This document shows positions 51,643 through 55,521 of a stretch of 60,938 bases of DNA, one piece after another; position 1 is the first letter of the stretch, and the number at the start of each line of letters is the position of its first letter. A program made the position numbers and the translations under genes. Under the pieces are notes generated by a model. The model was not told the origin of the DNA and ran no database searches. It was given only the letters and a program-made list of their open reading frames with translations. Origin of the DNA: Erysipelotrichaceae bacterium NK3D112 (GTDB lineage: Bacteria > Bacillota_I > Bacilli_A > Erysipelotrichales > Erysipelotrichaceae); NCBI GenBank assembly GCA_000701725.1, contig KL370820.1, forward strand, positions 1 to 60,938. The letters run 5' to 3'.

Positions 51643-51728
51643 AATAATGTCCTTTCAGAATTAACATCATTATATATGAACGAAGAACTGACCGGCGTTC
51701 AAATACCACTGTACAAGCTAAATAAACA

Positions 51729-51737
51729 TGATATGAT
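51729..51737 (+). promoter_or_regulatory. Extended -10 promoter of exporter leader
   Basis: TGATATGAT (TGnTATGAT) would start RNA near 51744, giving a leader of about 180 bases before the ABC gene. Confidence 0.55.
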
Positions 51738-51743
51738 ATTCAC

Positions 51744-51912
51744 AAATGAGGGAGTAACTGATGGATGATTCCATTTGACAGATCACCATCCCGGCAAATA
51801 TGCCTGGTCTGTCAGTTCCCGGTGAGACTCATATAACAGCAGCTTACTGTGTATGAGACTTGCAAATCAGGCTTGATCCGGACACAGTGAGCGCTGTGCC
51901 CGTTTATTTTTT
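51744..51912 (+). promoter_or_regulatory. Riboswitch-like attenuator leader
   Basis: The leader folds as a branched domain. GGGA (51750-51753) pairs with TCCC near 51817, closed further by ACTGA/TCAGT, with inner hairpins TGGA-TGAT-TCCA and GGCA-AATA-TGCC. Then comes CTCATA...TATGAG (about 51829-51856). A terminator (51879-51887 with 51894-51902, one A-C mismatch) ends in TTTATTTTTT right before GGAGG. ACTGTGT (51846-51852) is fully complementary to ACACAGT (51882-51888) and would act as antiterminator by breaking both the last aptamer hairpin and the terminator. GGGAGTAAC and CCGGTGAGACTC recall the yybP-ykoY manganese riboswitch, but its canonical end is not matched. Confidence 0.6.
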
Positions 51913-51925
51913 GGAGGCTGAAATT

Positions 51926-52666
51926 ATGCTTAAAGTCAAAAACGTTACAAAGAAATACGGCAAAGTGACTGCCTGCGACAATCTGTCATTCGAACTCGAA
52001 GACGGCACTGTGACTGTCCTGCTTGGACCCAACGGTGCCGGCAAGAGCACAATCATGAAAGCGATTATGGGCTTTCTCAAATTCGAAGGTGAAATCACCA
52101 TCGGCGGATATCCTAACAAAAGCACACAGGCCAGAAGGATTCTCGGCTACATTCCTGAACTGCCCGCTCTGTATCCGAATCTGACCGTGGCGGAACATAT
52201 GGAATTTCTGGCCAGGGCATACCGGTTAAAGGATTATAAACAGAAAACCGAAGAGCTTTTCACCCGCTTTGAACTGCTCGATAAAAAGAAGAAATTCGGT
52301 GATGAGCTTTCCAAAGGCATGCAGCAGAAGCTGAACATCTGTCTCGGTCTTTTAACGGATCCGAAGATGATGTTACTGGATGAGCCGATGATCGGTCTGG
52401 ATCCCCATGCGATCAAAGAGCTCAAAAACTCCATCGAAGAGATGAAAGCGCAGGGCAAGACACTGCTTGTCTCCACCCATATCATCGACAGCGTCGATAT
52501 GTTATGGGACCGCACGATCATCATGCAGAACGGACAGATCAAAGCCAACATCACCAGAGCACAGCTGGAAGAAGACGGCAGAAGCCTGGAACAGCTGTTC
52601 TTTGATGTGACCGAAGGCGTCAGCCAGGAAGCAATGTCCTCAAAAGAGGGAGAGGATCAGGAGTAA
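51926..52666 (+). CDS. ABC transporter ATP-binding protein
   Basis: A 246-residue ATPase: Walker A GPNGAGKST, Q-loop in GYIPELPALYP, signature LSKGMQQKLN, Walker B MMLLDEPMIGLD and switch His in STHIID. It belongs to the ABC-2 exporter type. GGAGG (51913-51917) directly follows the T-run of the leader terminator, so reading through the terminator is needed to expose it in full mRNA. The permease gene follows after three bases. Confidence 0.95.
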   Translation: MLKVKNVTKKYGKVTACDNLSFELEDGTVTVLLGPNGAGKSTIMKAIMGFLKFEGEITIGGYPNKSTQARRILGYIPELPALYPNLTVAEHMEFLARAYRLKDYKQKTEELFTRFELLDKKKKFGDELSKGMQQKLNICLGLLTDPKMMLLDEPMIGLDPHAIKELKNSIEEMKAQGKTLLVSTHIIDSVDMLWDRTIIMQNGQIKANITRAQLEEDGRSLEQLFFDVTEGVSQEAMSSKEGEDQE

Positions 52667-52669
52667 CCC

Positions 52670-55321
52670 ATGAGACTGTTTGGCTATTATGCGCTGCATT
52701 CCGTCTGGAACCAGATCCGCAAAGTCTTCAAGACATGGGTGCTGGTATTCATTCTTGTATGCGGTCTGATCGGCGGCCTGATCGGCTTTGGCGCGGCTTC
52801 TCTGCAAGAGGCCGCTTCGGCAGATGATGAGCAGATTGAAGAAGTGATTGAGGAAAGTGAGGAAGTACCGCAGGCCAGCTTTGAAGAACTGACCGGAGTC
52901 AGCGGTATGGATGTCTTTGAACTGGCCGCTTCAGGATTGATTCTCGGCATCTTCGTGTTCCAGGTTTACAGCGCTGAGAAATCCGGATCGAAAATCTTTC
53001 TGCCCGCGGATGTCAATCTGCTGTTTTCCTCACCGATGAAACCGCAGTCCGTTCTGATGTTCCGTCTGGGAACACAGCTTGGCATGGCGGTGGTCGGCTC
53101 AGTGTATCTGCTGTTTCAGATTCCCAACCTCATGCTCAATCTCGGTGTGAGTTTCTCATCGGCGATCTCGGTCATCTTCGCATGGGTTCTGACATTGGTT
53201 TCCGGCAAGCTTCTGCAGTTATTGACGTATGTGCTCTCATACCGCTATGAATGGGTTAAGAAGAATCTGCACAAATTGATCTACGCGTTCGGTGCGCTTC
53301 TGGTTGCAGGCTTCTGGCTTTATACACGAGCCGGCGATGCACCGCTGCTTCAGGCATCTGTCCGTCTGTTCAATGCCCCGTGGACCAGATGGGTTCCTTT
53401 CTGGGGATGGATCAAGGGATTTGCCGTCTTTGCCATGGAAGGCAAAGGCATCATGGCTCTGGTCATGCTGGCATTGCTCGCAGCCGGCTTTGCGGCACTG
53501 ATTTATGTGATCTGGCATATCGAAGTGGACTTCTATGAGGATGCCATGGTCAGCTCGCAGGAAGTGGCTGAAATTCTGGAAGCAGCGCAATCCGAACGCG
53601 GCGGGATGTTTGTCAAAAGAAAGAAGGACCGCAGTGAAAAACTGGAACGGGATGGCTTCCACTATGGCGAAGGAGCGAATGTCTATTTCTTCAAAACACT
53701 GTACAACCGCTTCCGTTTCGGACATCTGAAATACTTCACAGCGACCGCGGAGACTTATCTTGCGGCAGGTTTGCTGGCAGCCGCATTCATGCGGTTCATT
53801 GCGGAATCGGACAATGTGATGCCGTTTGCACTGGTGTTCGGTGTTCTTGTATTCTTCCGCGCGATCGGCAATCCGCTCAACACTGATACGAAATATGAAT
53901 ACTTCCGGCTGATTCCGGAAAGAACATGGAAAAAGCTCTTCTGGTCACTGGCAGGAGGCAGCGTGAACTGTCTGCTGGATCTTCTGCCGGGAATGATCGC
54001 CGGCGCACTTGTAATGGGAGTGAATCCGCTGAAGGCGCTGGCATGGCTGCCGCTCATCATATCGGTTGATTTCTATGCGACCAATGTCGGCACATTCCTG
54101 GATCTTTCCATTCCGCACTCAATCGGCACAACCATCCGTCAGACCATTCAGATCATGTTCATTTATTTCGGTCTGCTTCCGGATATCGCTGTATTGGCTG
54201 TCGGTATTGCCTTTGACCATCCGGTTGCCGCATCGATACTGTGCACATTCGCAAATCTTTATCTCGGTCTTCTCTTCCTCGGTCTTTCCGGTGTGTTTGT
54301 GGAGCCGTATGGCGGACGTGCACTTGAAACAGACGGCAGTGAAACCGTCAATGCAAAACAGACCAAAGCGGTCTTCTCAAAGATCGGTCTGGCCGGCGTG
54401 ATCATTCTCGGATTGACAACAGTATTGCAGCTGGGAATGGTCAGATTCTTTGAAAGCAGCCTGGAACAGATCGCTCAGTCCGAATGGGGCATGTGGCTGA
54501 TCACCTTCGCACCAATGTATCTGATCGCGGTTCCGCTTGGTCTGCTTTATCTGAAACAGGTACCTGCTGTAAAGATTGAAAAGAAGGATCTTGCGCCGAA
54601 GTATTTCTTTGTGATTCCCGTCATCTGTGTCTTCCTGATGTATGCGGGCAATCTGATCGGTGTGCTGGTCACTTCCCTGTTATCCAGATTCATCACACCG
54701 GATCCGGTGGTCAATCCGCTGCTTGATCTGACTTCTTCGGGAACAATATTACAGAGACTGCTGTTCATGGTCATTCTGGCTCCTTTGATTGAGGAATCTA
54801 TTTTCCGCAAACAGCTGATTGACCGTATGCATGTTTACGGAGGAAGAACAGCCGTGCTTCTTTCCGGAATCATGTTCGGCCTGTTCCACGGCAACTTCTC
54901 ACAGCTCTTTTACGCAACGGCTCTTGGCATCGTCTTCGGTTATGTTTATCTCAAAACGGGGAAACTCCGGTATACGATTGCGCTGCACATGCTGATCAAT
55001 TTCATCGGCGGCATTCTCGGACCTTCCATTGTGGAAAATGCGTCAGGAGTGCTTTCCAACATTGAAAAGCTGCTGATTCTTTCACCGGCTAAAATTCTCT
55101 CCATGCCGGAGCTCATCACACTTGTGTTATATATCGTTGCACTGCTTGCTCTGGTGCTGGCCGGATTTGTGCTTCTGGTTCAGCAGATGCGTGATGTCTC
55201 TTTTGAAAAAGAGATCTCTCAGCTGCCAAAAGGAAGCGCAAAAACCATCGCGTGCATCAATCCGGGAATGATACTGTTCTTTGTATCATGCGCCGGCATG
55301 ATTATATATACATTGATTTAA
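52670..55321 (+). CDS. ABC exporter permease fused to CPBP protease
   Basis: An 883-residue polytopic protein. The N-terminal two thirds is a putative ABC exporter membrane subunit of the PF16962 (ABC_export) kind with about ten helices, an early acidic insert (near 50-70) and the WAVLTLVSGKLLQLLTYVLSYR region type. The C-terminal third is a CPBP (Abi) intramembrane protease: PLIEESIFRKQ near 706 (the EExxxR motif), then SGIMFGLFHG and ALHMLINF, whose His and Asn complete the site. CPBP proteins mature peptides or modify prenyl groups. Joined here to an exporter, it may process an exported peptide. The ATPase is the gene before it; both are under the riboswitch-like leader. Confidence 0.85.
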   Translation: MRLFGYYALHSVWNQIRKVFKTWVLVFILVCGLIGGLIGFGAASLQEAASADDEQIEEVIEESEEVPQASFEELTGVSGMDVFELAASGLILGIFVFQVYSAEKSGSKIFLPADVNLLFSSPMKPQSVLMFRLGTQLGMAVVGSVYLLFQIPNLMLNLGVSFSSAISVIFAWVLTLVSGKLLQLLTYVLSYRYEWVKKNLHKLIYAFGALLVAGFWLYTRAGDAPLLQASVRLFNAPWTRWVPFWGWIKGFAVFAMEGKGIMALVMLALLAAGFAALIYVIWHIEVDFYEDAMVSSQEVAEILEAAQSERGGMFVKRKKDRSEKLERDGFHYGEGANVYFFKTLYNRFRFGHLKYFTATAETYLAAGLLAAAFMRFIAESDNVMPFALVFGVLVFFRAIGNPLNTDTKYEYFRLIPERTWKKLFWSLAGGSVNCLLDLLPGMIAGALVMGVNPLKALAWLPLIISVDFYATNVGTFLDLSIPHSIGTTIRQTIQIMFIYFGLLPDIAVLAVGIAFDHPVAASILCTFANLYLGLLFLGLSGVFVEPYGGRALETDGSETVNAKQTKAVFSKIGLAGVIILGLTTVLQLGMVRFFESSLEQIAQSEWGMWLITFAPMYLIAVPLGLLYLKQVPAVKIEKKDLAPKYFFVIPVICVFLMYAGNLIGVLVTSLLSRFITPDPVVNPLLDLTSSGTILQRLLFMVILAPLIEESIFRKQLIDRMHVYGGRTAVLLSGIMFGLFHGNFSQLFYATALGIVFGYVYLKTGKLRYTIALHMLINFIGGILGPSIVENASGVLSNIEKLLILSPAKILSMPELITLVLYIVALLALVLAGFVLLVQQMRDVSFEKEISQLPKGSAKTIACINPGMILFFVSCAGMIIYTLI

Positions 55322-55445: not shown

Positions 55446-55521
55446 GCCTTAATAGCTCAGTCGGCAGAGCGAGCGGCTGTTAACCGCTAGGTCACAGGTT
55501 CGAGCCCTGTTTAAGGCGCCA
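55446..55521 (+). tRNA. tRNA-Asn (anticodon GTT)
   Basis: A standard cloverleaf: acceptor GCCTTAA paired with TTAAGGC, D arm GCTC-AGTCGGCA-GAGC, anticodon loop CTGTTAA with GTT at 55479-55481, T arm with GGTTCGAGCC, discriminator G and encoded CCA. It is single, with its own promoter and terminator. An accessory island starts right after it, so it may be an integration site, though I saw no repeated copy of its 3' end. Confidence 0.97.

What the first reader, a model, noticed from the sequence alone, without database searches (positions are those of the whole stretch)
51744..51912. Riboswitch-like attenuator before an ABC/CPBP exporter
A branched leader ends in a terminator whose T-run touches the ribosome binding site, and ACTGTGT (51846-51852) is an exact antiterminator for ACACAGT (51882-51888). 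Resemblance to yybP-ykoY is partial (GGGAGTAAC, GGTGAGACTC), but the canonical closing is missing. It could be a divergent manganese sensor or a new class.
Basis: partly seen in the sequence, partly recalled or inferred. Interest (0 to 1): 0.62.

Follow-up and report, generated by a model that had tools for sequence, protein, structure and literature searches.

The report
Manganese riboswitch before an ABC exporter
The stretch is a manganese-sensing RNA switch of the known yybP-ykoY type that the standard RNA-family model fails to detect; in gut and rumen Erysipelotrichaceae it most likely turns on an ABC exporter/membrane-protease operon when manganese is high.

Summary
Window 51744-51912 folds unusually well (z -3.8), and ACTGTGT/ACACAGT is exact; it is the core of a 16-pair antiterminator. 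The leader is a yybP-ykoY Mn2+ riboswitch, not a new class. A covariance model built from 18 same-genus leaders finds it in 61 of 70 genomes of the genus. The motif precedes mntP and, in other families, P-type ATPases; the model's best hits in two E. coli loci are the mntP and alx leaders. The Mn-contacting adenosine (51788) and the L1/L3 core are invariant in 93 of 93 leaders, and 17 of 21 pairs covary. Rfam RF00080 misses this leader, but also misses E. coli mntP and alx at its cut-off. Proposed mechanism: Mn2+ stabilises P1.1, which blocks an anti-P1.1 hairpin (51828-51857), frees the antiterminator and allows read-through (Mn-ON). In 14 of 20 genomes with this exporter the leader heads its operon. 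Unusual: no P4 arm, the anti-P1.1 relay, and the targets (ABC/CPBP, SPFH, Na/Pi, DUF975). No binding was measured. An ordinary member with interesting targets.

The parts
51710..51737 (+). promoter-like site TGTACA-16-TATGAT with TG before the -10; would start transcription near 51744, at the aptamer
   Evidence: 9 of 12 matches; chance level alone, mean 1.0 site in shuffles; position just before the aptamer resembles other leaders
51746..51750 (+). P1.1 switch helix, 5' strand (AUGAG), pairs with 51828-51832
   Evidence: 91.8% of cells paired, 4 of 5 pairs change on both sides
51751..51756 (+). L1 loop GGAGUA (sarcin-ricin-like); A51753 corresponds to A10 of the solved structures
   Evidence: invariant in 93 of 93 leaders; mapping to PMC6754395 is mine
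51757..51760 (+). P1, 5' strand, pairs with 51820-51823
   Evidence: AU/GC/UA swaps, 98.1% of cells paired
51761..51774 (+). P2 hairpin (51761-51765 with 51770-51774)
51775..51785 (+). P3 5' strand, pairs with 51805-51815
51786..51792 (+). L3 metal loop CCAUCCC; A51788 corresponds to the Mn-contacting A41 (L. lactis) / A48 (X. oryzae)
   Evidence: A51788 and C51787 invariant in 93 of 93; structure data in PMC6754395
51793..51804 (+). distal P3 helix above L3 (51793-51796 with 51801-51804)
51805..51815 (+). P3 3' strand; followed by a short linker with no P4 hairpin
   Evidence: linker 3-8 nt in all 93 leaders
51820..51832 (+). P1 3' strand (51820-51823), GAGA (51824-51827; G51826 and A51827 correspond to G93 and A94), P1.1 3' strand (51828-51832)
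   Evidence: AGAC invariant in 93 of 93
51828..51857 (+). anti-P1.1 hairpin (51828-51835 with 51850-51857, 51837-51839 with 51847-51849): OFF state
   Evidence: wins in the prefix fold to 51858; -33.5 against -28.5 kcal/mol for the P1.1 state
51836..51897 (+). antiterminator helix: 51842-51852 with 51882-51892 (11 pairs), 51836-51840 with 51893-51897 (5 pairs): ON state
   Evidence: own-partner preference across leaders
51879..51912 (+). intrinsic terminator hairpin 51879-51902 and T-run 51903-51912
51926..52666 (+). controlled gene 1: ABC transporter ATPase (246 aa)
   Evidence: PF00005 E 1e-29
52670..55321 (+). controlled gene 2: ABC exporter permease fused to CPBP/Rce1-like protease (883 aa)
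   Evidence: PF16962 E 5.5e-88 and PF02517 E 2.3e-19

Best explanation
This is a Mn2+-sensing yybP-ykoY riboswitch acting as a transcriptional ON switch for the ABC ATPase and ABC-permease/CPBP operon. Sensing (inferred from the conserved core): Mn2+ bound between L1 and L3, with A51788 as the soft ligand, docks the aptamer and stabilises P1.1 (51746-51750 with 51828-51832). Switching (from sequence and folding): with P1.1 held, the strand 51842-51857 stays free and pairs with the terminator's 5' side (51882-51892), so polymerase reads through. Without Mn2+, 51828-51839 pairs with 51847-51857 (anti-P1.1), hiding both the P1.1 strand and the antiterminator strand, and the terminator 51879-51912 stops transcription just before the ribosome-binding site. 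The purpose, relief of manganese overload, is inferred from the other genes under the same RNA.
For: The model from 18 same-genus leaders hits 61 of 70 genomes of the genus at E <= 0.001 and 50 of 295 genomes drawn from the phylum. The motif precedes MntP, CaCA exchangers and others in the genus, and MntP, P-type ATPases and CaCA proteins in other families. The same model's best hits in two E. coli loci are the mntP (E 0.0021) and alx (E 0.21) leaders, both just upstream of the right gene. Core residues are invariant in 93 of 93, including the A41, A10, C44=G66, G93 and A94 equivalents (against PMC6754395). Covariation: 405 double-change cells against 117 +/- 13 shuffled and at most 76 when slid. 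Platform: 71 of 84 non-redundant leaders have a terminator; the antiterminator with the leader's own terminator averages -12.8 kcal/mol against -9.0 with others' (Wilcoxon p 1e-10). Prefix folding shows the P1.1, anti-P1.1, antiterminator succession. ON polarity and P1.1 as the switch helix are established for L. lactis (PMC11087558).
Against: RF00080 gives no hit at E <= 10. P4 is absent, while both solved structures are four-way junctions. Final-state energies favour the ON fold even without ligand (-51.1 against -45.4), so the OFF outcome must be kinetic. The p value is not corrected for relatedness. No ligand binding or expression was measured, and the ABC/CPBP substrate is unknown.
Confidence: 0.93

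Rival explanations
1. Same fold, but a variant that senses another ion or compound related to what the ABC/CPBP exporter handles.
For: Most of the genus' targets (ABC/CPBP, SPFH, Na/Pi, DUF975) have no proven Mn role; ABC leaders carry L3 types NNCA..CACGG rather than the ACATACT of the mntP leaders.
Against: The Mn-selective adenosine and the rest of the core are invariant in all target groups, and mntP and CaCA share the motif. E. coli alx, a reported Mn sensor (PMC9603457), has the GTCATTACG-type L3.
Confidence: 0.05
2. A genuinely new riboswitch class that only resembles yybP-ykoY.
For: No Rfam match at any useful score; P4 absent.
Against: One covariance model bridges the leader to mntP/alx of E. 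coli and to P-type ATPase leaders; RF00080's subthreshold hits in the genus are this same motif.
Confidence: 0.01
3. A plain attenuator or terminator read by a protein or by translation of a leader peptide, with no metal sensing.
For: A terminator abuts the ribosome-binding site; short ORFs cross the leader.
Against: The upstream 90 nt are more conserved than the platform and covary as an RNA aptamer; the same aptamer sits before many unrelated genes.
Confidence: 0.01

Closest known systems
yybP-ykoY Mn2+ riboswitch (RF00080), L. lactis yoaB type
   Same: P1.1, L1 GGAGUA, P1, P3, L3 with invariant CA, AGAC closing; P1.1 as the switch helix; transcription ON switch (PMC6754395, PMC11087558).
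   Different: No P4 (three-way instead of four-way junction). In L. lactis the P1.1 3' strand enters the terminator directly; here an anti-P1.1 hairpin and a separate antiterminator relay the signal.
E. coli mntP and alx Mn riboswitches
   Same: The genus model aligns to both leaders as its best hit in each locus; mntP itself is a target in this genus.
   Different: E. coli mntP is reported as a translational switch (PMC11647493, abstract); scores are low (16.9 and 10.2 bits).
Direct-type Mn riboswitches in the same genus (e.g. L144, L141, L170, L143)
   Same: Same aptamer.
   Different: The anti-P1.1 hairpin itself carries the T-run and seems to be the terminator; no relay.

Membership tests
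yybP-ykoY Mn2+ riboswitch | match to the Rfam model RF00080 at gathering score (a detection criterion, not a structural one) | tested here: not met
   No hit in the window. Uninformative as a criterion: the model also misses the E. coli mntP and alx loci at gathering, no genome of 60 reached the cut-off, and its 177-position structure leaves P1/P1.1 unpaired.
yybP-ykoY Mn2+ riboswitch | P1.1 switch helix and P1 closing the GGAGUA / GAGA module | tested here: met
   51746-51750 with 51828-51832 and 51757-51760 with 51820-51823; covarying
yybP-ykoY Mn2+ riboswitch | L1 with the A-minor adenosine (A10), and its C=G receptor in P3 | tested here: met
   A51753 and C51784=G51806 invariant in 93 of 93 (PMC6754395)
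yybP-ykoY Mn2+ riboswitch | L3 with the invariable Mn-contacting adenosine (A41/A48) | tested here: met
   A51788 invariant in 93 of 93
yybP-ykoY Mn2+ riboswitch | homology to experimentally proven members | tested here: met
   Model R1 finds the E. coli mntP (E 0.0021) and alx (E 0.21, weak) leaders as best hits with filters off, and mntP and P-type ATPase leaders in other families
yybP-ykoY Mn2+ riboswitch | four-way junction with P4, as in the two solved structures (a feature of those structures; not shown to define the class) | tested here: not met
   Linker from P3 to P1 is 3-8 nt in all 93. Several mntP leaders of other families also have only a short linker, so P4 does not seem to define the class.
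yybP-ykoY Mn2+ riboswitch | control of Mn/Ca transport genes | tested here: met
   mntP, CaCA, P-type ATPase among targets of the motif; for the window's own operon the substrate is unknown
yybP-ykoY Mn2+ riboswitch | selective Mn2+ binding and Mn2+-dependent gene expression | not testable with these tools
   needs in-line probing or transcription assays

The most novel reading that the evidence does not exclude
The ABC exporter fused to a CPBP intramembrane protease, with DUF975 in some genomes, is itself a new manganese-efflux or manganese-stress envelope module, recruited to the Mn regulon in one clade of gut and rumen Erysipelotrichaceae, alongside SPFH/flotillin-like proteins and Na/Pi transporters.
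Probability: 0.25. Interest if true: 0.55.

Novelty: new member of a known kind. Interest (0 to 1): 0.3.

Why it matters
It removes a candidate 'new class' from the list and shows why it arose: the RF00080 model used here is blind to a large, coherent set of Mn riboswitches. It also outlines a Mn regulon in a barely studied group (7 copies in this genome) that puts transporters and membrane proteins without a known Mn role under Mn control, which makes their function testable. The relay platform (anti-P1.1 plus antiterminator), next to direct-type relatives in the same genus, is a useful natural series on how an expression platform is rebuilt around one aptamer.

Tried and rejected
Rfam scan of the window and leader at gathering and at E <= 10: only tRNA, and chance hits to tracrRNA and SNORD101. 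New class: rejected because of the bridging to mntP/alx. Idea that the exporter replaces MntP: MntP is present in 68 of 70 genomes, including this one; by hand count, 2 of 14 exporter-leader genomes and 15 of the rest have mntP directly behind the motif, no clear difference, dropped. TerC as a further target: no match over the cut-off in the genus. Riboswitch before exporter homologues outside the genus: none found with R1, and no other Rfam riboswitch there, so they give no hint of the substrate. Constrained folding did not enforce the constraints; replaced by explicit energy evaluation. The original Mn riboswitch papers (Dambach 2015; Martin 2019) are not held and could not be read.

Full report
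What is there. The leader 51744-51912 lies between a promoter-like site and an ABC ATPase gene (ATG 51926), followed by a gene for an ABC exporter permease fused to a CPBP protease. It folds far better than shuffled sequence (z -3.78). The terminator (-11.5 kcal/mol) ends in a T-run, 51903-51912, that abuts the GGAGG at 51913.

First hint. Rfam finds nothing in the window but a tRNA, and nothing credible in the leader even at E <= 10. A DNA search of 60 relatives finds similar leaders in the same genus, several of them before quite different genes. Weak RF00080 hits in the same genus and order, before mntP among others, turned out to be the same motif.

Comparative proof. Eighteen same-genus leaders were aligned; the consensus structure has 21 pairs, 14 of them with compensatory changes. 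The covariance model R1 built from them hits 61 of 70 genomes of the genus, seven places in this genome, and 50 of 295 genomes drawn from the phylum. On 93 aligned leaders, 94.1% of cells pair; 405 cells have changes on both sides, against 117 +/- 13 in shuffles and at most 76 when the partner is slid; 17 of 21 pairs show such changes. That alignment was fitted to the structure, so the counts lean towards it, but the margin is large.

Identity. The features of the solved yybP-ykoY structures (PMC6754395) that I could check are all found except P4: L1 GGAGUA with the A-minor adenosine (A51753), its C=G receptor (C51784=G51806), the Mn-contacting adenosine (A51788), the GA partners of the sarcin-ricin-like loop (G51826, A51827) and P1.1. 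All these loop letters are the same in 93 of 93 leaders; the mapping of numbers is mine. R1 also has its best hits in two E. coli loci at the leaders of mntP (16.9 bits, E 0.0021) and alx (10.2 bits, E 0.21), both reported Mn riboswitches (PMC9603457). In other families R1 hits lie before MntP, P-type ATPases and CaCA exchangers (these gene names are mine from the protein sequences, only the same-genus representatives were scanned with Pfam). The RF00080 model used here leaves P1 and P1.1 unpaired and does not reach its cut-off on the E. coli loci, so its silence is a property of the model.

Mechanism. In prefix folds the aptamer with P1.1 is the best structure up to 51841; once 51858 is made, the anti-P1.1 hairpin 51828-51857 wins (-33.5 against -28.5 kcal/mol without ligand); when 51892 is made, P1.1 plus antiterminator is favoured again. 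So the decision is kinetic: Mn2+ must hold P1.1 against the anti-P1.1 hairpin until the antiterminator partner appears. This gives Mn-ON, the polarity known for L. lactis, where P1.1 is the switch helix (PMC11087558). Across 84 non-redundant leaders, 71 have a terminator; in the 69 used, the antiterminator strand pairs better with its own terminator than with those of other leaders (-12.8 against -9.0 kcal/mol, p 1e-10, not corrected for relatedness). A few leaders (L141, L143, L144, L146, L170) look like the direct type, with the T-run right behind the anti-P1.1 hairpin. Shown here: the anatomy, its conservation and the mutually exclusive helices. Inferred: Mn2+ as ligand, ON polarity, kinetic control.

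Targets. In the genus the motif precedes CaCA exchangers, MntP, Na/Pi transporters, an uncharacterised membrane protein, ABC/CPBP operons, two SPFH groups, DUF975, CitMHS-type transporters, DUF6054 and others. Of 20 genomes with the exporter, 12 have the motif directly before the ABC gene and two (G026, G073) have leader-DUF975-ABC in line (in G073 the operon is split over two contigs, so that one is inferred). In the other six (G015, G029, G033, G063, G081, G093) no motif was found; these copies have 43% identity or less to the window's protein, whereas copies at 44% and above have it. Homologues outside the genus have none. The link is thus lineage-specific. What the exporter moves is unknown. 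Records with named origin place the group among gut and rumen Erysipelotrichaceae / Solobacterium-like MAGs.

Verdict. Known class, divergent member, detection gap in the library. The only surprising parts are the targets and the relay platform.

Noticed in passing
RF00080, Rfam 15: The Rfam Mn riboswitch model has 177 positions with P1/P1.1 unpaired, and does not reach its gathering score at E. coli mntP/alx or in any of the 60 relatives searched, although R1 finds the motif in most genomes of the genus.
   Followed up: partly
own genome: G000 C1:164105, C5:50241, C12:26921, C6:7586, C12:56989, C9:60449 (L183-L188): Six further Mn riboswitch copies before a CaCA exchanger, an uncharacterised membrane protein, a Na/Pi transporter, an SPFH protein, a DUF6054 protein and a CitMHS-like transporter; no such leader was found at the genome's mntP (C12:43286).
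   Followed up: partly
L004, L007, L073, L106, L176; L208 in another family: SPFH/Band 7 (HflK- or flotillin-like) genes repeatedly follow Mn riboswitches; in B. subtilis FloA/FloT appear among proteins listed with the TerC proteins MeeF/MeeY (PMC10246235).
   Followed up: no
L104, L140, L174, L180, L160, L157: An uncharacterised membrane protein (about 490-580 aa, its first 185 aa without a Pfam match) follows Mn riboswitches in 13 loci of the genus.
   Followed up: no
L006 1049-1246: A T-box leader (82.4 bits, just under the cut-off of 93) next to a Mn riboswitch locus.
   Followed up: no
L021 2189-2259 (-): A tetrahydrofolate riboswitch candidate at 34.3 bits, just under its cut-off of 36.
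   Followed up: no
window 55446-55518 (+): A tRNA gene directly downstream of the ABC/CPBP operon; two Lachnospiraceae homologues (L244, L245) also have a tRNA near the end of the match.
   Followed up: no
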